64,000 bases of DNA from a virus. Numbering within the stretch: position 1 is the first letter of the stretch; every line of letters begins with the position of its first letter. Shown in pieces: positions 13,176 to 40,112 of this stretch. The position numbers and the translations under genes were made by a program. Location of the stretch: the IMG/VR virus record IMGVR_UViG_3300026534_000102, positions 1-64,000 of that record, one strand, 5' to 3'. The notes under the pieces were generated by a model. That model searched no databases. It was not told the origin of the DNA and saw only the letters and a list, made by a program, of their open reading frames with translations.

Positions 13176-13358
13176 TTATTTCCACCAAATTGTGTAAGCA
13201 AAATTTAAAGCTTGAATAATTCCTCCTAAAATACTAGCCCACAAAATTATTCTGTTTCTAATTTTTTGCTGAGTAATTTCATCGGTCGTATTAGCAATTT
13301 CTTGGCCCACAAGCCCATGAGTCAATTTAATTTTTGCTGTAGTAAGCTTTCCCATCAT
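13176..13358 (-). CDS. Small single-pass membrane protein, 60 aa
   Basis: The N-terminal 35 residues are polar (LTTAKIKLTHGLVGQEIANT) and residues about 37-57 are a membrane segment (IILWASILGGIIQALNFAYT), ending WWK. The start overlaps the stop of the caspase-like gene by four bases (ATGA), so the two are translated together. A membrane partner of the peptidase, possibly anchor or effector, is the obvious hypothesis; there is no direct evidence of interaction. Confidence 0.7.
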   Translation of the reverse strand: MMGKLTTAKIKLTHGLVGQEIANTTDEITQQKIRNRIILWASILGGIIQALNFAYTIWWK

Positions 13359-14344
13359 AATCCCCCAAACACTTTTCTATTCAATAAATCTTTTTCACCA
13401 GTTAATTGTGGATCTTGTTCATAACCCAAAGACTTCAACTTACTTACTGTTTTAGAATAAGCACTTGTCCAACTGTCATCTTCAGACAGAGTAGCCACAA
13501 AAGAATATGTTAGAATCCCGTGCCAATTGTTATCAATAATCACACTCATAGAAGTCTGTGTAGATTTGCAACCACTTAATAGAACATGTCTCTGTGGTCT
13601 TCCATCCTCTCGTCTTCCTATCGAATTAGTAATTAAGTTTTTGGTAGTAAAAATAGCTTGCAAAAATTCCTGCGGCGGGACAATAAACCGCTCCATAGTA
13701 TTAAGGTCTTTACTTATTGTTCCACTATGACAAGAATCACTAATCATTGATAAGAAAACCCCCATAGGTAGTTTCTTAAAAATAGCTGCAATTTCATCAT
13801 CTACAATATAACCACCATCCCAATTAAAATCGTGCGGAATTAAAACTTCATCTAGTTTATCCACTTCATCCCCATTTATATCAGGAACTTGGCTACCATG
13901 TCCTGAAAAATGAAAAACAAGTTCGTCTCCTTTAACAGAAGCGGTAATCATTTTATCCAATTCAGTTAAAATATTGTTTTTAGTTGCTTTTTCATTTGTC
14001 AACAACACAATATTATTTTCATTAAATCCTCTATCTAACAGTACAGATTTTATTTGAAGAGCGTCAGCTACACATCCTTGAAGTCCCACTTTAGGATCAT
14101 TATACACATCTATTCCTACCAATAAAGCGTATTTTGTATCCCGTGTTTTTTCTACAGGAACTTCTGGTGTCGTAGAAGGTGTGTCTTCTAAACTTTCAGA
14201 ACTTTGATCAGGTTTAGAAACAACTATACTTATTTCATCTGGAGCTTCATCTACGTCTGAAGAAGGCTCTTCAGGTGCTTCTTCTATAATAGAGGACTTA
14301 AATAAATTTTGTATCCAATCTATAAAGGCTGCCCACCAAGTCAT
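13355..14344 (-). CDS. Caspase-like peptidase (C14 / type I metacaspase fold)
   Basis: The start MTWWAAF follows AAGGAG at seven bases; a longer frame to 14401 lacks a ribosome site. The first 60 residues hold an aromatic/hydrophobic N-terminus and an acidic, Pro-rich linker. The peptidase domain begins KYALLVGIDVYNDPKVGLQG at about 71. The catalytic dyad is complete: H149 in HFSGHGSQ and C205 in SDSCHSG. The DELVFHFSGHG and NGDEVDKLDEVLIPHDF segments are classic metacaspase sequence. Such enzymes cleave after basic residues in many bacteria. A phage copy could act in host killing, lysis, or disarming host defence. It is coupled to a 60-residue membrane protein. Confidence 0.9.
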   Translation of the reverse strand: MTWWAAFIDWIQNLFKSSIIEEAPEEPSSDVDEAPDEISIVVSKPDQSSESLEDTPSTTPEVPVEKTRDTKYALLVGIDVYNDPKVGLQGCVADALQIKSVLLDRGFNENNIVLLTNEKATKNNILTELDKMITASVKGDELVFHFSGHGSQVPDINGDEVDKLDEVLIPHDFNWDGGYIVDDEIAAIFKKLPMGVFLSMISDSCHSGTISKDLNTMERFIVPPQEFLQAIFTTKNLITNSIGRREDGRPQRHVLLSGCKSTQTSMSVIIDNNWHGILTYSFVATLSEDDSWTSAYSKTVSKLKSLGYEQDPQLTGEKDLLNRKVFGGL

Positions 14345-14433
14345 ATTTCTCTCCTTCTTAAATTTATTATGTCGCCAAAAACTATGCCCACAAATACCCA
14401 ATACCCAATATATTTTACATAAAATTAGACCAA

Positions 14434-15208: not shown

Positions 15209-18200
15209 TTATTCCCTAAGGTTCTTAAATAACAATGGAATTCCTTCATCAAATCCTGACGTTGTAGTCAATCCTTCATTATATGCAAAAGAGCCTGAAA
15301 TTACAGTAGGCATAATTTTACCATAAATAAGATGATTATAGTCAGGTTTCGACTCGTCATCTAGACAAACAACATAATGATGCTCACCGTAAGGTGTTTC
15401 TAACCAGAAATAACCAGTACCACTTGCAGACACAGCACTATCAACCAATGAGTGATCACTGCTTCTATATAAAGCAACCTCCCTTTGAACAGGCTGACCC
15501 TTTTCTTTTACATATCCTTCTATGAAGTACTTATTGTACTCTGGCCACTGATAGACATAAGCTGCACTATTAGTATAACTACCACCAGTCTTACGGGCTA
15601 CAAGATTTGTGTTGTCTTTGAACCAAAAGTAGTAGCTTCCTTCACCCCAAGCATTAGAACTACCTGTATATACTCTTCCTTGCCCTAGCATGTCTGATGT
15701 TATTATCATAGATCGACTGATGTCTATCGGCTCTTTGAGCTTTAGTGGATAAACACCAGATGCAGTAGTTGACAAGCCTACAAAATACTTCCTACTCATA
15801 AAATCTAAATCTGTATACATCTCTATGATTTCGCAGGCCCTGTGTTCCAAAGAATATGAAGAATAAGACCGATCAAACCTGATTCTATCACCATATAAAT
15901 CATAAATTCTATAAGTGCCTGCATCTGGTCTATAGCTTGTATAACTATGAGAATATGACGCTAAAAGCATGCTTTTAGAAAAAACAGGTTTATACTCTAC
16001 GGACATATCTACAGTGTTATTACTGTTACTTGTTGTCTCATATAAATGCTGAACGGTCCAATAGTTACTCTCATTTATACACTCTACTACATACCAACTA
16101 ATATATATATTGTCGCTTGAACTATTTCGTCTAAAAGCTATTTCTTCATCACTATTGAAGTGCCCAACCACGGCATTATATGCTGGACCATCACCGTAAG
16201 AATCTGAAAAAGCATAAAATAATAGAAACGCTCTATCCAGGTCTACTTTATCAATAGAGAGTGTTATAGTATTACCATTTGAATATCCGAAGCCGTGCTG
16301 AATTTTAATGTTATCATTAAACTCGACTATGTATACGGTTACATATCGTGAAGCGGCGGTGCCGAATCGTACTCTAAAACAATCAGGGTCTTCAAATCGA
16401 TAAATTGCCCTTGATCGACGAATGGCATCAGCATTTGAGGTTTGATTTGAATAGTTCATAAACGGGATACATTGTTTGATGTTTTGTCCTTTAGTCAAGT
16501 ATGCCTCAATAAGAGAAGAACTTGCATACTGTTTAAATACTTGTAACGATCTAATAAACCCTTTTGTTGGTACAGAAGGTCTTATACTATGTGCATCCTG
16601 ATAATGATACCCAGTCCAATTTATTAATCCAAAATTACCCTGACTACTTGTACCTGAACCTCCTTTGGCAACCTCAACTGTTTTTGTTTCATAATCCGAT
16701 ATGCGAATTGTACCAATAGCCTGTGACCATGTTGCTGAACTTGTGGAACATATCATAGTACTGGACTGTATATGATTGAAACAAGTTAGACCATCCTCCT
16801 CTAAAAAGTTGCTTACATATGTGAAAGTGTTAGTGGTATCTGTCTGAACGGAGTAAAAAGTATCAGTATGCCTTTTCTCATCTAAAAATTTAACGAATGT
16901 AACAGTAAAGTAAGCTGTGTAAGTAGCATAACCGCGAAAACAATCAAATCTAAAATCCAACCATAATCCAGCGCGCCATGCGGAAGCATCCATTCTTGTA
17001 GAAGAATAATTAGTAGCATAGGATGCTATGGAAAATGAATTATGACTTGACCATATGTAGTCATCGTTGTAAAAACTAAGACGAGTAGAAGAAGATGAAC
17101 TATTAGCATGTCGAGTAACAAAGTTATCTTTAAGATCCTCTACCACGAAAATAGATGTATCAACCTCATAGCTTGTACCAGCTTTATAAAACTCTACATG
17201 AGAAGTGTCTGTAAATCTAACCCTCACCATGCTATAACTCGGCCGCGCATCCCCCGATGTAAATGTTTTGGATAAAATGAAGCATTTATTAACATCAGAG
17301 ACTTCTTCTATCGGCAATGTAGTAGTTGTTTGGCCTGATACATACGTATTCTTATGCTGTACCTTGACTTGATTTGGCCAAAATTCTACTACACTTATAT
17401 CAACTCGAAGCTGCCCAGCTGTACTCCACCTCTTAACACAAACTATACCAGGAGAAACCAAATAAACATTAGCCATTTGATCTCTTAGGTTATTACCCGA
17501 AGTACTACTAGTTGATGCGAATACAGCACAATTTTCCCAATTTTGTCCTTTAGATAACTTACGGCACGCAAAATTCCTTTCGCCACTTATACGGAAATTT
17601 TCAACGGATTTGACAAACGATTTCCCAGGACCATTACCTTCTGGTATAGGATTAGAATTAGATCCAATATCTATTTGTATACCCGCCCAATCAACTACTA
17701 TTAAATATGATGGGTATGCAGTGTAACCACTACTACTTCTTTCTAAGAAAATACCGTCATCATTATTTAATTTAGCAGATACAAACATCTGATCTATAGC
17801 GCTGGTAGACGAAGTATTAACACGACACACTCCTTGCGCCATAGCACATACTATAGTAGAAGTATCTGTATTAACTGCAAACGGGACTCTATTAGAATCA
17901 TTTCCGTAAGTAAGTGTGTTAGAAGTAGATGTTGAATCAACACTAACTAGTTGATGAATAAACGGTGTATAGATCTTTTCTTTATCAAGAAATTCGACCA
18001 CTTGATATGCCCAGTAGATAGTATAGGATGCGTATCCACGATCACATCTTATTGATCCGTCAGAATACAAAAATATCCTTGCCATTCCAGCATCTGGTCT
18101 GGTGGCTGAGTAGTTAGTTGCACAACTGCCTATAATAAAAGTTCGCAAAGGATCGACGCAGTGCCTATCGGGATGCACAATAGTTGTCTCGCCTGTACCA

Positions 18201-18754
18201 CTGTAACTATGAGAATGATGCGTAACTCTAAAATTATTTTTTAAATCCTCAAATAAATACCAATGTCCTTGACAAGAAGCACCTGCATCATTTCTGTAAA
18301 AATCAATAGTTGATTCATTAACAACACGGCCCCTAACACAATGGTATCTAAAGTTTTGACTAGTTGAAGAACTCCACCAGAAATGAGTCATTGCAGCCCG
18401 ATCCGTACCACTTAAAGTTGTTCCTAGTGTTATTGCATCAGTGATCTGATCATTTAAATCAAAGGATCCTTGTTGAACTCTTACCTCTTCGGGATTAAAT
18501 TCTACAATATAACATCTAATAGTTAATGCATTACTTCGTTGTTTAATACGTTTGAAAACAATATTGGCTGTACTTTCAAAATAGATATCAAGCATATGAG
18601 AGTCTTGATAGTCACTTCCTCCATGAGCAGTCATGAATGGTATACAATTACTCAAATCAGGGGTACCACTTAAAGTAACAGAGCCGCTTAAAGAAGTGGC
18701 ACCTAAAGTGTATTCTACAAATTGTACTGATTCTACCCAACTAGATACAGCCAT
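15209..18754 (-). CDS. Large repetitive beta-rich protein, probable tail fibre/adhesin (1181 aa)
   Basis: The protein contains three divergent copies of a unit of about 350 residues, starting near 1, 375 and 735. Each copy shows the same order of motifs: a V-x-S-V/L-x-x-F start, a YIVEFN or VVEFWPNQVKVQH strand, an S-Y-x-x-x-x-x-F hydrophobic block, a VVEDLKDNF segment, ATNYSSTRPDAG and RGYATYTxY...V-x-F-L-D. Residues about 1080-1150 (FIEGYVKEKGQPVQREVALY) resemble a carboxypeptidase-regulatory-like beta domain. There is no signal peptide. The most likely role is a virion fibre that binds the host surface. Serine and threonine richness is high. A lone CRISPR-type repeat lies just upstream of the start. 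Confidence 0.7.
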   Translation of the reverse strand: MAVSSWVESVQFVEYTLGATSLSGSVTLSGTPDLSNCIPFMTAHGGSDYQDSHMLDIYFESTANIVFKRIKQRSNALTIRCYIVEFNPEEVRVQQGSFDLNDQITDAITLGTTLSGTDRAAMTHFWWSSSTSQNFRYHCVRGRVVNESTIDFYRNDAGASCQGHWYLFEDLKNNFRVTHHSHSYSGTGETTIVHPDRHCVDPLRTFIIGSCATNYSATRPDAGMARIFLYSDGSIRCDRGYASYTIYWAYQVVEFLDKEKIYTPFIHQLVSVDSTSTSNTLTYGNDSNRVPFAVNTDTSTIVCAMAQGVCRVNTSSTSAIDQMFVSAKLNNDDGIFLERSSSGYTAYPSYLIVVDWAGIQIDIGSNSNPIPEGNGPGKSFVKSVENFRISGERNFACRKLSKGQNWENCAVFASTSSTSGNNLRDQMANVYLVSPGIVCVKRWSTAGQLRVDISVVEFWPNQVKVQHKNTYVSGQTTTTLPIEEVSDVNKCFILSKTFTSGDARPSYSMVRVRFTDTSHVEFYKAGTSYEVDTSIFVVEDLKDNFVTRHANSSSSSTRLSFYNDDYIWSSHNSFSIASYATNYSSTRMDASAWRAGLWLDFRFDCFRGYATYTAYFTVTFVKFLDEKRHTDTFYSVQTDTTNTFTYVSNFLEEDGLTCFNHIQSSTMICSTSSATWSQAIGTIRISDYETKTVEVAKGGSGTSSQGNFGLINWTGYHYQDAHSIRPSVPTKGFIRSLQVFKQYASSSLIEAYLTKGQNIKQCIPFMNYSNQTSNADAIRRSRAIYRFEDPDCFRVRFGTAASRYVTVYIVEFNDNIKIQHGFGYSNGNTITLSIDKVDLDRAFLLFYAFSDSYGDGPAYNAVVGHFNSDEEIAFRRNSSSDNIYISWYVVECINESNYWTVQHLYETTSNSNNTVDMSVEYKPVFSKSMLLASYSHSYTSYRPDAGTYRIYDLYGDRIRFDRSYSSYSLEHRACEIIEMYTDLDFMSRKYFVGLSTTASGVYPLKLKEPIDISRSMIITSDMLGQGRVYTGSSNAWGEGSYYFWFKDNTNLVARKTGGSYTNSAAYVYQWPEYNKYFIEGYVKEKGQPVQREVALYRSSDHSLVDSAVSASGTGYFWLETPYGEHHYVVCLDDESKPDYNHLIYGKIMPTVISGSFAYNEGLTTTSGFDEGIPLLFKNLRE

Positions 18755-18778: not shown

Positions 18779-18811
18779 GTTTCAATCCACGCACCCCCTG
18801 CGGGGTGCGAC
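18779..18811 (-). repeat. Solitary CRISPR repeat-like unit (type I-C consensus), possible RNA anti-CRISPR
   Basis: The minus strand starts GTCGCACCCC, has loop GCAG, continues GGGGTGCG and ends TGGATTGAAAC, 33 bases in all. The arms CGCACCCC and GGGGTGCG form an 8-bp hairpin. The start GTCGC, hairpin and 3' handle GTGGATTGAAAC are the hallmark of type I-C repeats (for example GTCGCACTC...TGGATTGAAAT in Bacillus halodurans). Only one copy exists and no cas genes are seen. It lies 15 bases after tRNA-Thr and 24 bases before the fibre start, on the transcribed strand. Confidence 0.8.
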
Positions 18812-18826
18812 CCACTCGGCATCGAT

Positions 18827-18902
18827 TGGAGCCCCCGACAGGAATCGAACCCGTGACATCCTCATTACAAGTGAGGTGCTCTTCCAGCTGAGCTACGGAG
18901 GC
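18827..18902 (-). tRNA. tRNA-Thr (TGT)
   Basis: Acceptor GCCTCCG/CGGGGGC, anticodon stem CCTCA/TGAGG, loop CTTGTAA, anticodon TGT. CCA is encoded (18827-18829). Confidence 0.95.
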
Positions 18903-18964: not shown

Positions 18965-18992
18965 TTTGTGCCTAATCTTTATTAGACACAAA
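18965..18992 (-). terminator. Hairpin at gene end (possible terminator)
   Basis: A 12-bp stem (TTTGTGTCTAAT with ATTAGGCACAAA, loop AAAG) overlaps the stop codon of the nuclease-like gene. On the minus strand it is followed by a run of A, not T, so termination is not certain; it may protect the 3' end. Confidence 0.45.
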
Positions 18993-19413
18993 CCCCTCTG
19001 CCCCAAAGTTTAAACTCTTCAAATGTAAACATTAATACATCTTTATATAAGATTCCTTCACATCTAGATTTTAACCATGCTTTTGCACCGTGTTTATAAC
19101 CCTCCCCTTCAACTATAAGAATAACAATCCTTTCTTCAAACGCTAATGCGGTCTCAAAAAAATAAGGTAATTTTTCATCAACTGATCCTGCCACATTTTG
19201 AAAACGACATTCTATTCTAATATCTTTTTTACCATCTAGAGTTAAAACGAATTCTCCTCTACCATTACCTCCATATATTGTAATGTAAGGAACATTTTTT
19301 AATAGTAGTCCTTTGATTAATAACGGAAACTGTATACGATCGTGCACCCAATCAGAAAACATAATTGAGGTAATACCATGCTCCACAAAAAAAAGTCTCA
19401 ACCTTGTCTTCAA
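18982..19413 (-). CDS. PD-(D/E)XK-like nuclease, possibly split by a frameshift at its 5' end
   Basis: The frame begins at TTG and encodes a compact alpha/beta domain with a probable nuclease core: NGRGEFVLTLDGKKDIRIEC followed by RFQNVAGSVDEKLPYFFETA, giving E...D...ExR/K-like spacing as in phage PD-(D/E)XK proteins, then a beta segment (RIVILIVEGEGYKHGAKAWL). The start is unusual. A better ATG with AGGGAAG upstream at about 19458 opens another frame (MEMNQGQLAKQS) that stops at the TGA near 19412, exactly where this frame opens. That N-terminus suits this family, so the gene may carry a one-base frameshift, real or from sequencing. Confidence 0.6.
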   Translation of the reverse strand: MKTRLRLFFVEHGITSIMFSDWVHDRIQFPLLIKGLLLKNVPYITIYGGNGRGEFVLTLDGKKDIRIECRFQNVAGSVDEKLPYFFETALAFEERIVILIVEGEGYKHGAKAWLKSRCEGILYKDVLMFTFEEFKLWGRGVCV

Positions 19414-19487: not shown

Positions 19488-20288
19488 TTAATTATACACT
19501 ACTAACACTTCCTCTACCTTTCCTCTGCCGCTTGCCTTCGCACTTATAAATCTGTTTATAAACTTTCTATGACTACAATCACCATTTTTATACAATTCTT
19601 CAGTAATCTGAGGAATCCAATGATTTGATATTAATACCTTACATTCACTTGCCTCAGCACAAGCTACTAATTTCTTTTGGTGGTCAAAAGTAAATATTTT
19701 ATCAACATAACTGGTAAAATAAGAACTTGCACCTAAAGGTATATAAGGTGGATCACAATAAAAAACATCACCTTTCTGTTCACGATTAAATGTTTCTTCA
19801 AAATCACAACAAAGGAACTCAAACTTTTTTGCTTTCTTATGGAAAACCAACATCTCTTTATCTGGAAAGTAGACTGATTTGTATTTTCCAAAAGGCACAT
19901 TAAATTTACCGCTTAAATTATATCTACACAACCCATTAAAAGCATGACGATTTAAATAAAGAAATAAAGCAGCACGTTCTGTATTAAATGTTAATGAGTT
20001 GAATGTATCACGCCTACTGTAATAAACAGATTTATTATTTCCGTCTATGAAAAATTTTTGACAATAAGCAATAAAATCTGTTCCATTATTTTTTATATTC
20101 TCAAATAAATTAATTAAATCTTGGTTACAATCCGCCAATAAATAACTATCAGCATCAATATTTAATGACATTACCCCCGAACCCACAAATGGTTCAACAA
20201 ACCGTACTATTTTTTTTGGGAGTACTTCTTTGATAAAATCAATACTTTGTGTTTTACCACCAGCCCATTTTAAAAAAGACTTATTCAT
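19488..20288 (-). CDS. dam: Dam-type N6-adenine DNA methyltransferase (D12 class)
   Basis: The 266-residue protein has the family motifs in the alpha-class order: KWAGGKTQSI at 8-16, the AdoMet site FVEPFVGSGVMSLNI at about 30-44, and catalytic DPPY at 179-182 (FYCDPPYIPLG). The NRHAFNGLCRYN region and the C-terminal VLISNHWIPQ are typical of Dam-like phage enzymes. It should methylate adenine, probably in GATC, to protect phage DNA or change its replication and packaging. A promoter lies at 20318-20345. Confidence 0.93.
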   Translation of the reverse strand: MNKSFLKWAGGKTQSIDFIKEVLPKKIVRFVEPFVGSGVMSLNIDADSYLLADCNQDLINLFENIKNNGTDFIAYCQKFFIDGNNKSVYYSRRDTFNSLTFNTERAALFLYLNRHAFNGLCRYNLSGKFNVPFGKYKSVYFPDKEMLVFHKKAKKFEFLCCDFEETFNREQKGDVFYCDPPYIPLGASSYFTSYVDKIFTFDHQKKLVACAEASECKVLISNHWIPQITEELYKNGDCSHRKFINRFISAKASGRGKVEEVLVVYN

Positions 20289-35648: not shown

Positions 35649-38600
35649 TTAAATCTCCTTTTTACACTTATTGCAAATCAATTTTGTTTTGTATTTCTTA
35701 TCTGGAACAAAAATCATTTCATCATTTCCACAATCACATTCACTTTTCAACCAACAAGGCCCAATTAAAGCATCAGTTTCCATAGGAATTTTGTGGAAGT
35801 AATGTCCAAACCCATCAATTAATGAATTTGCTACAAGTTTACCCACGTCATGTCTTTCTTCATGTTTACACTCTACAACTACTTCATCATGAACTGTTAA
35901 TATCAATTTAGCATCATAAGAGCTTTTTTCTAGTCTGTCAACTAAGTAAATCATAGATTGTTTAATAGTATCTGCATTTGAATTGTGGACTAACACACCA
36001 TTAGCTGTAAAATAATGAATATTATTGCACATTAAATCATAAGTCTTTTCTTTTCCTTTATAACTTATGTGTTTTTTCTTACAAAAATCAAAATTCAAAA
36101 ACCGAGAAAGTAGTTGTTTATTCGGTCCATTAGGAAGTTTATAATAAAATTTTCTCCAACTCACATAAGAACTTTTACCTAACTTAAATCTTCTTAAATG
36201 TGCTTTCTCTGGAAAGGACAATGATGCATAACGATCTTTGTTTTCCCTGAATGTTTTTTCTATAAGTTTTGGTATAAACTCAGGCACAACACCCCCATCA
36301 CCAAACATTGGAATGGAACTTTCTTCGTCAAGAATTTTATCTTTAATTTTTGTAGAAAAACCCACATATTTTTTAAATCTACTATTAAATCTTTTAGGAA
36401 TCTGTATTTTATAAACTCTATCATATATTTTCAAGTTAGAATTTATACCTAACGAAAATAGAAGTTGATGTACTGACTTTGCAAGCTGTTCAGAAGTAGT
36501 AGTAAAACTTGGACCTGATTCTTTAGTCATCTCACCACCTGTTGAAAACAGCCCATTTAACAAGGCCCCTTTATTTTCTATAGTTTCAGTATGAAAATAA
36601 TCAGGAATAGCTTTTTTATGATGAGACACATAATCAAGCCCTATATGTTTTAGAAAGCCACGTATTACTACAGAATTAACTTGTGACCAGGGTAACGGGT
36701 CCCTATTGGCATCATTTTTATGGCGCATCCTTATTTTTGATTTATACCCGAACTGATCGTACACCGCATTATTAAATTTCTCAAATAGCTCTTTTTGATT
36801 TTGTGGACAAACAAAAGCAAAGTGGTTGTGTTTTGTGTAACTACCGTTCCCTATCAGACACCCTATAATAAAAGCCAAATCAGCATTCATTTTAGAAGGT
36901 AAATTATAATTTACATAAGTTTCTCGGCGGTGGCCTTTTTCATACTTAAATCCTGACAAATTAGTAGTTCGGCCTGAAACAATATTTAAAGGAATTATTA
37001 ACAAATCGTCTTCTTCTAAGTCAGCTACCTTTACATCTTCTATATTATAATTGTCACCATATTGCTTGCATATGGGAATTTTATGATCCGATGTAATATC
37101 CAGTGTAGCTCCATTAGATAAAGTAAGTGTGAATACCTCCTTTTCTCCAGAATATACTCCAATAGCATTATCACTGCCTATACCTGTTTCTAAAGAACAC
37201 TGTACATTCTTAAGAGAGCCTATCTTACCCTGCCCTTTAATTATAGTATCGAATGACAAGCAACCTTGAATAGGGGCATTTTTAGCCCTGCGTTCAACAC
37301 TACTTTTTAATCTCCCGAAATCTGGATTGCCATACTCTGGTAAAGTGTAATATCTTTTTCTTCCGCTTATAGATCTGCTAAACCTATTCATGACTGCGTC
37401 TTTAGCAGCTTTTTCTAAATATTTTTTAACTCCTCTGTATCTTTTAAAGTATGTTGTTATCATCTGATCAGCTTTTGCTTCAGATATTTTTAGCCGCCGC
37501 GCGAGACCATATTTAGAAAGTCCATAACAATTATGAACCACAAAACCATTTGCAAGAAAATATGGATGTTCTTCTACAGATATATCATATACTTTCTTTA
37601 ATCCTTTACTTTTTATAGATCTGATTTCCAAAGGAACTATGCCTTTTTCGTAAAGCATCTTAAAAAGAGAATCATATTTAGAAAGCTCTTTTAAATAAAT
37701 ATCTCCGACAGAATCAGAAAATCTGCTTTTATAAAACCTGTCCTTTAATTGTTTACTTATTTCATAATTATGTACTGTGTGGTCTATTCTATCTTTATAT
37801 TTGCCAATAAAATATGAGGAAACATTATAATGCACTTCACTCTTACACTTACAATTTTTTAAATCTGTAACAAACCCAATATATTTAATAAACAATTCAG
37901 AACTATTTTGAGATATAACAGATAAAACATAATATGTATTATTATATCCTTCACGAGATTCCTCTATGATAGAAGACACAATACCTAAGTTTAAAAGCAT
38001 TAATTGTACGTCTTTAACAAGGTTATAAGAAGCACTACTATAGGTTATCTTATAACCAGCCCCATTTAACTTTACAGAACCATCCCCTTCGAATAACCAC
38101 TTTAAAAACTCTGTTTGATAACCTAAAGGTGCCCTTTTAATACAGCCCGGAACACCAACATCAAAAGTTTTATTTTTATTATTTATATCACAAACATTAA
38201 CAAGCCATTCTGCAAACAGTACTGAATTAATAGTATATCTTGTATACGTTCCCTCAGTCTTAGAAATGCGATCCTTAAATAAACGAAACAATAATTTATC
38301 TATTTTTGAAATGAATTCTTTATTTTCATTACTAAACCCAAAGGAAACAGTACTATAATGTTCGCGCCCTTTGGCTTTAAGTATACTTCCCTCAGCCACA
38401 AACAACCCTAAAAAAGCAGCTACATCTTTATTCATTTCATCTGGCAAAGGCATAGGTTTATAATTGGTTCCTTCAACTACTTTAAAATCACCAAATTTTG
38501 GTAACATTTCTGGAAACAAAAAAGAACCTTTTTTAATACAAATCAAGTCTTGTTTTATATCAATTTTATTTAATGGAACATCTACATACTCTCCATTAGC

Positions 38601-40112
38601 ATTTATAACTTTAACTATGTGATCAGAAGTTAACTCAATAGAATAACCGTATTTAGTCTGTATTTCGAAAACTTCCTTTTCTCCCATATATTGTTTATCT
38701 ATTATTTGATTGCTACCAAAATCATGTGCCACTACATCGTTCAAGTTGCTATGTATAATTTTTTTTATTCCACCGTTAGTAATAAGTTGAGTATCTGCAG
38801 TGGTACAAAGACCGAAGTTGATCGCCTTGGCAGCATTTCTCATATCCTTTGTAACTTTATCCATTGAAACATTAAAAACTTCAGATGCAGTTCGAGTATG
38901 TAGATCAATTCCAGTAGCGTAACATTCTATAAACACTGGGTCAGCAGACAAATTACCTAAAATACGTAATTCGGCACCAGACATGTCTGCTGTAATTAAA
39001 GAATTACCTTCTTCTGCTATAAAACATGATCTATATAATTGTTTCTTGGGTATGTTTTGTAAATTAGGACGGGCGCTGCTCATCCTTCCAGTAGAAACCA
39101 TTTGTTTGAAATCAGTATGTAGCCGGTTTGTAACTGAATGAATCTGATTTAACAATGCCTCGCCATAAGTTGAAATTAATTTATTTGCTTTTCTATATTT
39201 TAATAAGGTATCTATAACTGGAATCCCTTGAAATTTAGTTAGTGTGGCTTCATCTGTGCTATCAATGTTTGACAAACCATGATGACTCAATGCTTCTTTT
39301 AATTGGATTGGGCTATCAATATTAACCGAAGGCACACCAAATAAAAACCCTTGATCGGAACCCTTTGAAAGCATCTTAGATATATCAAAATGTAGTTTTT
39401 CCCGTTGCTCAGCAATGTTCTCCATTATAAGGTGCCATTTATCCACATCTATTTTAATTCCATTTAATTCCATTTCACACATAGGCTTAGTAAACTCAAA
39501 TTCAAGTCTGGCAGCATCTGTAAGTCCTTCTTTAACAATTTGACCCCATTGTAGTTCTTTTATGGTTGATAAAACCACCACGTCATTAGCAGCATATTCT
39601 AATTGAAAAGGTTTAAATTTTTGATAGTAGTCCTTAAACGTGTGGGCTGGTTCTTTTGGCATTGTTATGCCTAAATATTTTTTAACTAACTTTGCCAAGG
39701 ATGCACCAGCAAAAACTTTTCCCAAGCCCAGTAATTGTTCAATAAGCATAAGATCCACGATATTATTTATATAAAAACCATGATTAGCTTTTATCAATTT
39801 CATATCAAACACAGCATTTTGCAATAATTTTTGAATATGTGGATTTACTAATAAAGGCTCAAATAATGACAAGTCAACATTACTGAAATCTGTGTCTGAC
39901 CTTACATCAAACACATACACCTTCGTTGGGGTTCCAATTTGAAGTAATGACACCTTAGCATAAAATGGATCCAAATCAGTAGCCTCAGTATCAATAGCAA
40001 TACGATCAAACTTGCTTATCTCACTAAGAGCAGTCCGTGCTTTTTCTTCCGAAACAATGTAATCATACTCCGGTTTCGGCAGATAAATCTCTTTTGTTTC
40101 TACTAAAGACAT
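35649..40112 (-). CDS. polA: Family A (PolA-type) DNA polymerase interrupted by two inteins
   Basis: The 1487-residue precursor has a 3'-5' exonuclease domain (IAIDTEATDLDPFYAKVSLL, FDMKLIKANHGF, YAANDVVVLSTI). The polymerase motif A is ITADMSGAELRILGNLSADP near 374, motif B is RNAAKAINFGL then CYGLSKYGLARR, and motif C is TVHDEVVVE near 1397. The 5' nuclease domain is absent. Removing the two inteins (436-861 and 951-1377) leaves 634 residues, a normal T7-like or Pol I Klenow size. Inteins sit at the catalytic O-helix and at the APIQG-SNADTIK motif. The C-terminus carries a zinc-ribbon-like tail (CDCGNDEMIFV, CNKCKKEI). It is the replicative polymerase of the phage. Confidence 0.95.
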   Translation of the reverse strand: MSLVETKEIYLPKPEYDYIVSEEKARTALSEISKFDRIAIDTEATDLDPFYAKVSLLQIGTPTKVYVFDVRSDTDFSNVDLSLFEPLLVNPHIQKLLQNAVFDMKLIKANHGFYINNIVDLMLIEQLLGLGKVFAGASLAKLVKKYLGITMPKEPAHTFKDYYQKFKPFQLEYAANDVVVLSTIKELQWGQIVKEGLTDAARLEFEFTKPMCEMELNGIKIDVDKWHLIMENIAEQREKLHFDISKMLSKGSDQGFLFGVPSVNIDSPIQLKEALSHHGLSNIDSTDEATLTKFQGIPVIDTLLKYRKANKLISTYGEALLNQIHSVTNRLHTDFKQMVSTGRMSSARPNLQNIPKKQLYRSCFIAEEGNSLITADMSGAELRILGNLSADPVFIECYATGIDLHTRTASEVFNVSMDKVTKDMRNAAKAINFGLCTTADTQLITNGGIKKIIHSNLNDVVAHDFGSNQIIDKQYMGEKEVFEIQTKYGYSIELTSDHIVKVINANGEYVDVPLNKIDIKQDLICIKKGSFLFPEMLPKFGDFKVVEGTNYKPMPLPDEMNKDVAAFLGLFVAEGSILKAKGREHYSTVSFGFSNENKEFISKIDKLLFRLFKDRISKTEGTYTRYTINSVLFAEWLVNVCDINNKNKTFDVGVPGCIKRAPLGYQTEFLKWLFEGDGSVKLNGAGYKITYSSASYNLVKDVQLMLLNLGIVSSIIEESREGYNNTYYVLSVISQNSSELFIKYIGFVTDLKNCKCKSEVHYNVSSYFIGKYKDRIDHTVHNYEISKQLKDRFYKSRFSDSVGDIYLKELSKYDSLFKMLYEKGIVPLEIRSIKSKGLKKVYDISVEEHPYFLANGFVVHNCYGLSKYGLARRLKISEAKADQMITTYFKRYRGVKKYLEKAAKDAVMNRFSRSISGRKRYYTLPEYGNPDFGRLKSSVERRAKNAPIQGCLSFDTIIKGQGKIGSLKNVQCSLETGIGSDNAIGVYSGEKEVFTLTLSNGATLDITSDHKIPICKQYGDNYNIEDVKVADLEEDDLLIIPLNIVSGRTTNLSGFKYEKGHRRETYVNYNLPSKMNADLAFIIGCLIGNGSYTKHNHFAFVCPQNQKELFEKFNNAVYDQFGYKSKIRMRHKNDANRDPLPWSQVNSVVIRGFLKHIGLDYVSHHKKAIPDYFHTETIENKGALLNGLFSTGGEMTKESGPSFTTTSEQLAKSVHQLLFSLGINSNLKIYDRVYKIQIPKRFNSRFKKYVGFSTKIKDKILDEESSIPMFGDGGVVPEFIPKLIEKTFRENKDRYASLSFPEKAHLRRFKLGKSSYVSWRKFYYKLPNGPNKQLLSRFLNFDFCKKKHISYKGKEKTYDLMCNNIHYFTANGVLVHNSNADTIKQSMIYLVDRLEKSSYDAKLILTVHDEVVVECKHEERHDVGKLVANSLIDGFGHYFHKIPMETDALIGPCWLKSECDCGNDEMIFVPDKKYKTKLICNKCKKEI
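35982..37262 (-). other. Intein 2 of the DNA polymerase (residues 951-1377)
   Basis: The element starts CLSFDTIIKG (Cys1), has a block B-like TSDHKIPICK, and ends ANGVLVHN followed by Ser. The LAGLIDADG positions read FIIGCLIGNGSY and LLNGLFSTGGEM; in the second motif the catalytic acid is replaced (STGG), so the endonuclease may be dead while splicing residues are intact. It is 427 residues long. Confidence 0.9.
37530..38807 (-). other. Intein 1 of the DNA polymerase (residues 436-861)
   Basis: It starts CTTADTQLITNG (Cys1), has block B LTSDHIVKVI, and ends FLANGFVVHN followed by Cys. LAGLIDADG motifs are AFLGLFVAEGSI and FLKWLFEGDGSV, both with an acidic residue at the active position, so homing activity is plausible. 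The insertion point is in the polymerase O-helix just before CYGLSKYG. It is 426 residues long. Confidence 0.92.

What the first reader, a model, noticed from the sequence alone, without database searches (positions are those of the whole stretch)
18779..18811. Solitary type I-C-like CRISPR repeat next to tRNA-Thr: possible RNA anti-CRISPR
A single 33-base unit carries GTCGC, an 8-bp hairpin CGCACCCC/GGGGTGCG and the handle GTGGATTGAAAC. It sits in the transcribed strand 15 bases after a tRNA and before a large fibre gene. There are no cas genes and no second repeat. Solitary repeat units in phages that mimic repeats and sequester Cas proteins (RNA anti-CRISPR, Racr) are an established class. 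The tRNA context would give co-transcription and 5' processing by RNase P/Z-type cuts. That it inhibits a Cas system, and that the host carries I-C, is inference.
Basis: partly seen in the sequence, partly recalled or inferred. Interest (0 to 1): 0.9.

Follow-up and report, generated by a model that had tools for sequence, protein, structure and literature searches.

The report
Lone CRISPR-repeat mimic in phage genome
A bacterial virus carries one stray copy of a type I-C CRISPR repeat just after a tRNA gene and just before a large protein gene, probably a decoy RNA that jams the host's CRISPR immune system; such decoys are a known class, and this is a good new member whose activity has not been tested.

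Summary
Window 18779-18811 (-) is a 33-nt type I-C CRISPR repeat (GTCGCACCCCGCAGGGGGTGCGTGGATTGAAAC) with a perfect 8-bp stem. It starts 15 nt after the CCA end of tRNA-Thr and ends 24 nt before the ATG of a 1181-aa gene. It occurs once in the whole 115-kb record, which has no hits to the Cas1c, Cas5c or Cas7c profiles. The closest true array repeats differ by one loop base (97%, 58 bits). Repeats of this sequence family lie beside Cas5c, Cas7c, Cas1c and Cas4c genes in several genomes. The unit meets every published SRUFinder sequence criterion for a solitary repeat unit, the class that includes RNA anti-CRISPRs (Racr; RacrIC1 has been tested). At least 84 other hairpin-bearing solitary I-C units turned up in viral contigs, so this is a new member of a known kind. 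Five sampled phage relatives lack the tRNA genes, and none of 45 relative records has the handle. tRNA linkage recurs in two other contigs, one with the same tRNA-14 nt-repeat order. New mechanistic point: Cas5c cleavage would place the 11-nt crRNA 5' handle on the downstream gene's mRNA leader, with its ribosome site and start codon in the "spacer" position. Host, transcription and inhibition are untested.

The parts
18779..18811 (-). Solitary type I-C CRISPR-like repeat unit, 33 nt, candidate RNA anti-CRISPR
   Evidence: 97% identical to array repeats of L004 and L022
18790..18809 (-). Stem-loop CGCACCCC-GCAG-GGGGTGCG (8 bp, 4-nt loop), the Cas5c-recognised hairpin in real I-C repeats
   Evidence: fold
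18779..18789 (-). TGGATTGAAAC, the 11-nt stretch that would become the crRNA 5' handle after Cas5c cleavage at the base of the stem
   Evidence: sequence; the 11-nt handle of I-C crRNAs is from PMC5965380
18812..18826 (-). 15-nt tRNA 3' trailer ATCGATGCCGAGTGG between the CCA end and the repeat
18827..18902 (-). tRNA-Thr (TGT) with encoded CCA
   Evidence: ARAGORN; Rfam 66.3 bits
18755..18778 (-). 24-nt leader of the next gene (CAAAATAAACTTTAAGGAACTTTT) with an AAGGA ribosome site; lies in the 'spacer' position behind the handle
   Evidence: sequence; no second genomic match
15209..18754 (-). 1181-aa gene of unknown function; 28% identical to another gene of this record (record 70806-74213); about 40% to a gene in the large-gene block of relatives G003 and G033
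   Evidence: no Pfam or PHROG hit
18982..19413 (-). PD-(D/E)XK nuclease-superfamily protein (PF20472), neighbour upstream
   Evidence: E 8e-21
19488..20288 (-). D12-class adenine DNA methyltransferase (orphan type), possible anti-restriction neighbour

Best explanation
The unit is a solitary type I-C repeat that works as an RNA anti-CRISPR (Racr). It is transcribed within the minus-strand tRNA-island transcript. The tRNA is trimmed at its 3' end, leaving or exposing the hairpin. In a host with type I-C CRISPR, Cas5c binds the hairpin as if it were pre-crRNA and cuts at its 3' base. One Cas5c stays on the hairpin; the downstream RNA now bears the 11-nt 5' handle that nucleates Cas5c-Cas7 assembly, but no phage-targeting spacer follows it. 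Cas5c, and probably Cas7c, are thus tied up in useless complexes while the phage replicates. Shown: sequence, structure, solitariness, sense placement, kinship to real I-C repeats. Inferred: transcription, processing, Cas binding, inhibition, and an I-C host.
For: Exact repeat anatomy with a perfect stem. Once in 115 kb, with no Cas1c, Cas5c or Cas7c hits. 58-bit, 97% match to array repeats, above the SRUFinder limits of 90% identity, 90% coverage and 41.1 bits (limits from PMC10651486). Repeats of the same family sit beside Cas5c, Cas7c, Cas1c and Cas4c genes. 102 distinct solitary I-C units (this one included) were collected from viral contigs; 83% keep a stem, against 31% when arms are shuffled between units. 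The stem is therefore kept as RNA pairing across the class. RacrIC1 inhibits type I-C, and it too is expressed as part of a longer co-transcript (PMC10651486). The tRNA-repeat order recurs independently in L229. The neighbours are a DNA methyltransferase and a PD-(D/E)XK protein.
Against: No expression data. No host known, and no spacer among 249 collected I-C spacers matches the phage convincingly. The exact 33-mer was not found in the 84,980-species genome collection. The handle is absent from all 45 relative records, most of them fragments, so the unit is not conserved in the lineage. No nearby promoter-like or terminator-like signal exceeds chance. In a long fold of tRNA plus leader the tRNA mispairs, although the repeat hairpin still forms.
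Confidence: 0.66

Rival explanations
1. Remnant of a viral CRISPR array or mini-array: the phage once had two or more repeats and a spacer, and only one repeat is left, without present function.
For: Viral contigs with whole I-C-type arrays exist (L110, L040, L053). Mini-arrays are known in viruses (PMC8616872).
Against: No partial repeat within 100 nt on either side. The unit is intact, with 0 mismatches to the motif and a perfect stem. The expected spacer position holds the ribosome site and start codon of a gene, with no match elsewhere in the record.
Confidence: 0.12
2. CRISPR-dependent regulator of the downstream gene. Cas5c cleaves the leader and Cas5c-Cas7 assembles over the ribosome site and start codon, so the 1181-aa protein is made only, or less, when the host has an active I-C system. 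The decoy effect is secondary.
For: The 11-nt handle is followed by 24 nt and then ATG, so the 33-nt spacer footprint covers both the AAGGA site and the start codon. In many other solitary I-C units the next co-directional ORF also starts within 60 nt (20 of 35). The Cas5c-Cas7 clamp on the handle nucleates assembly (PMC7684278).
Against: Short intergenic gaps are usual in phages, so the spacing may be incidental. Among intergenic stem units 17 of 52 have the next gene on the other strand. A phage would pay for CRISPR presence with a structural-type gene.
Confidence: 0.1
3. Crossover site: the repeat lets the phage recombine or insert into a host I-C array and interrupt it.
For: Proposed for solitary repeats in the literature (PMC10651486; PMC8616872).
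Against: 33 bp is short for homologous recombination; no integrase was sought or seen; nothing in the record points to a temperate life.
Confidence: 0.03
4. A chance hairpin or an ordinary RNA-processing or stability hairpin between tRNA and mRNA that merely resembles a CRISPR repeat.
For: tRNA islands need processing signals, and chance look-alikes do occur: tRNA-Phe anticodon arms read GTGGATTGAAAA/T, and tRNA or tRNA-like look-alikes gave 9 of 11 hits in a tRNA-linked scan.
Against: All 17 fixed motif bases plus the full stem match; the unit is not part of a tRNA; chance expectation is 0.05 per window even with 3 mismatches allowed. There is no T-run and so no terminator.
Confidence: 0.06

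Closest known systems
RacrIC1 (solitary I-C repeat in a Bifidobacterium pseudocatenulatum prophage, PMC10651486)
   Same: Solitary type I-C repeat in a phage genome, in sense with a neighbouring gene, expected to be expressed as part of a longer RNA.
   Different: RacrIC1 lies 11 nt downstream of acrIC5 in a bicistronic RNA and has tested activity. This one lies downstream of a tRNA and upstream of a large structural-type gene, has no known acr neighbour and is untested.
RacrIF1 (Thiocystis violascens prophage, type I-F; PMC10651486)
   Same: Repeat mimicry without cas genes or spacer.
   Different: Type I-F with Cas6f. After processing, RacrIF1 lacks a 5' handle; in type I-C the Cas5c cut would leave a 5' handle on the downstream RNA.
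Viral CRISPR mini-arrays (for example in Saccharolobus portogloboviruses)
   Same: Orphan CRISPR repeats in a viral genome.
   Different: Mini-arrays have one or two spacers between repeats; here there is one repeat only and no second half-repeat.
L229 unit (IMGVR_UViG_3300021254_001626, 904-937)
   Same: tRNA, then 14 nt, then a solitary I-C unit, in a tRNA island with DNA methyltransferase genes.
   Different: Different tRNA (Leu-CAA), different stem sequence, contig not closely related (only a methyltransferase and one further weak protein match).

Membership tests
Solitary repeat unit (SRU, as defined by SRUFinder) | At least 90% identity and 90% coverage to a known CRISPR repeat, score at least 41.1 bits | tested here: met
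   97.0%, 33 of 33 nt, 58 bits to array repeats in L004 and L022; my repeat set came, not from the SRUFinder database
Solitary repeat unit (SRU, as defined by SRUFinder) | Intergenic | tested here: met
   Lies between tRNA-Thr (ends 18827) and the ATG at 18754; no ORF of 90 aa or more overlaps it
Solitary repeat unit (SRU, as defined by SRUFinder) | No other full or partial repeat within 100 bp | tested here: met
   Flank alignments not above shuffled flanks; one copy in 115 kb
Type I-C repeat | Repeat family found in arrays next to Cas5c, Cas7c, Cas1c or Cas4c genes | tested here: met
   L007, L008, L014, L023, L028
Type I-C repeat | Hairpin followed by an 11-nt 5'-handle sequence | tested here: met
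   8-bp stem then TGGATTGAAAC; 11-nt handle from PMC5965380
RNA anti-CRISPR (Racr) | Expressed as RNA during infection | not testable with these tools
   Sense orientation in an all-minus-strand gene order is only suggestive
RNA anti-CRISPR (Racr) | Host carries a CRISPR system of the matching subtype | tested here: inconclusive
   Host unknown; exact 33-mer absent from the genome collection; no convincing spacer match among 249 spacers
RNA anti-CRISPR (Racr) | Relieves CRISPR interference | not testable with these tools
   Needs a phage-resistance assay
CRISPR mini-array | At least one spacer between two full or partial repeats | tested here: not met
Phage-borne CRISPR-Cas | cas genes in the record | tested here: not met
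   No hit to Cas1c, Cas5c or Cas7c profiles; other Cas families were not sought

The most novel reading that the evidence does not exclude
A CRISPR-sensing leader: the solitary repeat is part of the mRNA of the downstream gene. I-C Cas5c cuts it and leaves a crRNA 5' handle on that mRNA, and Cas5c-Cas7 assemble over the ribosome site and start codon. Host CRISPR is then both sponged and used as a switch for a phage gene; the tRNA upstream supplies the 5' end by 3' tRNA processing.
Probability: 0.08. Interest if true: 0.75.

Novelty: new member of a known kind. Interest (0 to 1): 0.42.

Why it matters
If active, it adds a type I-C RNA anti-CRISPR from a phage lineage with no recognisable structural-gene relatives among sequenced isolates, and it suggests tRNA genes as carriers that express and trim such decoys. 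It also raises a testable type I-C question: what happens to an mRNA when Cas5c leaves a crRNA handle on its leader.

Tried and rejected
Close relatives by the downstream gene and by a large-gene-block protein: none found in viral contigs. The DnaB helicase found 45 relatives. None has the 12-base handle, and the five larger ones have no tRNA genes. Spacer matches from the I-C arrays to this phage: best is 19 of 20 matching bases within a 35-nt spacer, not convincing. The downstream 36 nt as a real guide: no second match in the record and only weak, short matches in relatives; the bases before it are AAC, not the TTC expected for a type I-C PAM (PAM from my own knowledge), so self-targeting is unlikely. 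tRNA-linked scan: 9 of 11 hits were tRNA look-alikes (8 tRNA-Phe genes, plus L221, a tRNA-like stretch) and were discarded; of the other two, L228 has no tRNA by ARAGORN, leaving L229. The reverse order (repeat, then tRNA) gave L104 only. Terminator and promoter scans: nothing above shuffles. Drawing relatives for a virus record, and laying the whole record as a file, were not available.

Full report
OBSERVATION. The claimed unit is at window 18779-18811 on the minus strand, letter for letter: GTCGCACCCCGCAGGGGGTGCGTGGATTGAAAC. It folds into an 8-bp stem with a 4-nt loop and an 11-nt single-stranded tail, -17.5 kcal/mol, z -3.0. With three mismatches allowed, the motif occurs once in the window, perfectly; shuffled windows give 0.05 on average. 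The full 33-mer occurs once in the 115,311-base virus record that holds the window. The tRNA-Thr ends with CCA at 18827, so the trailer is 15 nt; the unit ends 24 nt before the ATG at 18754. The unit is 64% G+C in a 34% G+C record (sequence). The 100 nt on each side contain no part-repeat, and Cas1c, Cas5c and Cas7c profiles find nothing in the record.

WHAT IT IS. A scan of one genome per species (84,980 species) for the same stem with any loop found 32 stretches of DNA, many of them CRISPR arrays, from Bacteroidales, Clostridia and other Bacillota, Pseudomonas and others. The nearest repeats differ by one loop base (GCAC in L022, 29 copies; GCAA in L004) or lack one G (L007, L016, L020, L021, L028); the exact 33-mer was not found. 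Beside such arrays lie Cas5c (L007, L014), Cas7c (L007, L008, L014), Cas1c (L008, L028) and Cas4c (L008, L023) genes. The unit is therefore a type I-C repeat by sequence and structure. It meets the published criteria for a solitary repeat unit (90% identity, 90% coverage, 41.1 bits, intergenic, no flanking repeat; PMC10651486) at 97%, 100% and 58 bits.

THE CLASS. With the window's unit included they gave 102 distinct solitary I-C-like units, of which 85 keep a stem of at least 5 bp. That is 83%, against 31% (maximum 42%) when arms are shuffled between units, so the stem is kept as pairing while its sequence varies. Of the 85, 56 are intergenic; the next gene is in sense for 35 and opposed for 17. 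Solitary type I-C repeats are thus common in viruses. This agrees with the published survey (2,103 SRUs in viral sequences, RacrIC1 tested; PMC10651486), and the finding is a new member of a known kind. Whether this very unit is already in that survey's tables could not be checked.

CONTEXT. The record is a phage-like genome with all main genes on one strand, 19 tRNA genes in window 10.5-23.1 kb, and a DNA polymerase, DnaB helicase and exonuclease. The structural-type proteins that I tested have no PHROG match, apart from one marginal hit to a family of unknown function, and the two run against annotated phages have none there. Relatives with DnaB at 43-55% identity exist only as metagenomic contigs. 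None of the 45 records contains GTGGATTGAAAC, and the five largest examined have no tRNA genes, so tRNA island and unit are accessory. The gene behind the unit is 40-41% identical to a gene in the large-gene block of relatives G003 and G033, and 28% identical to another gene of its own record, 70806-74213; it appears to be an additional copy placed in the tRNA island. On the other side are a PD-(D/E)XK protein and a D12 adenine methyltransferase.

tRNA LINKAGE. I searched viral contigs for a tRNA T-arm followed closely by an I-C unit. Nine of eleven hits were false: in eight, the anticodon arm of tRNA-Phe reads GTGGATTGAAAA or GTGGATTGAAAT, and a ninth (L221) is a tRNA-like stretch. This is a trap for CRISPR-repeat searches. 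Of the remaining two, L228 has no recognised tRNA, and L229 has tRNA-Leu(CAA), 14 nt, then GTCGCCCCCTCTCACGGGGAGCGTGGATTGAAAT, in a tRNA island with four DNA methyltransferase genes on the contig. L104 has the opposite order, unit then about 16 nt then tRNA-Leu. So tRNA linkage recurs but is rare, and it could reflect nothing more than accessory islands.

MECHANISM. In type I-C, Cas5c (Cas5d) replaces Cas6. It cuts the repeat so that the crRNA has an 11-nt 5' handle and a 21-nt 3' hairpin tail, and one Cas5d stays on the hairpin (PMC5965380). The handle is clamped by Cas5c and Cas7, which nucleates assembly (PMC7684278). Applied here by inference: a transcript through the tRNA would be trimmed at the CCA end; Cas5c would bind the hairpin, cut between G18790 and T18789, and leave TGGATTGAAAC on the downstream RNA. 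That RNA continues with the leader of the next gene, so an assembling Cas7 filament would cover its ribosome site and start codon. The bases in front of this pseudo-spacer are AAC and it has no second match in the record, so it should not guide cleavage of the phage. The net effect would be titration of Cas5c and Cas7, as in the Racr model. It differs from RacrIF1, whose processed product lacks the 5' handle (PMC10651486).

VERDICT. Interest is moderate: the class is established; the extra points are the tRNA linkage and the Cas5c-handle consequence for the downstream mRNA.

Noticed in passing
L220, L222, L223, L224, L225, L226, L227, L230 (tRNA-Phe genes); L221 similar but not called a tRNA: The anticodon arm of tRNA-Phe(GAA) reads GTGGATTGAAAA/T and mimics the type I-C repeat handle, a false-positive source for solitary-repeat searches.
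   Followed up: yes
window 13355-14401 (-): Caspase-fold peptidase gene (Peptidase_C14, E 4e-23) in a phage genome, close to the tRNA island.
   Followed up: no
window 35649-40112 (-): 1487-aa protein whose N-terminal third matches DNA polymerase I type phage families; the long C-terminal part has weak matches to polymerase, helicase and terminase-type families. Possibly a fusion or an intein-bearing polymerase.
   Followed up: no
window 15209-18754 and record 70806-74213: Two homologous large genes in one phage; the copy in the tRNA island is closer (41% vs 28%) to the gene in the large-gene block of relatives than the copy in place.
   Followed up: partly
L110 (IMGVR_UViG_3300045115_000211, 113 kb): Viral contig with about ten regularly spaced I-C-type repeats (a phage-borne array) and a further, solitary unit about 6 kb away.
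   Followed up: no
L052 and L060 (same contig IMGVR_UViG_3300031673_000079): Three identical solitary I-C units dispersed in one 50-kb viral contig, two of them about 600 bases apart.
   Followed up: no
L232 1501-1530 (Akkermansia phage Chantilly): Isolate phage with a solitary I-C-like hairpin, GTCGCACTCCGCAAGGTGTGCGTGGATTGA, followed by CCCC instead of AAC: handle end altered, about 20 nt before the next gene.
   Followed up: partly
G000 and contigs L158-L202: Phage lineage whose tested structural-type proteins have essentially no PHROG family match and, for the two searched, no match in annotated phages; known only from metagenomic contigs.
   Followed up: partly
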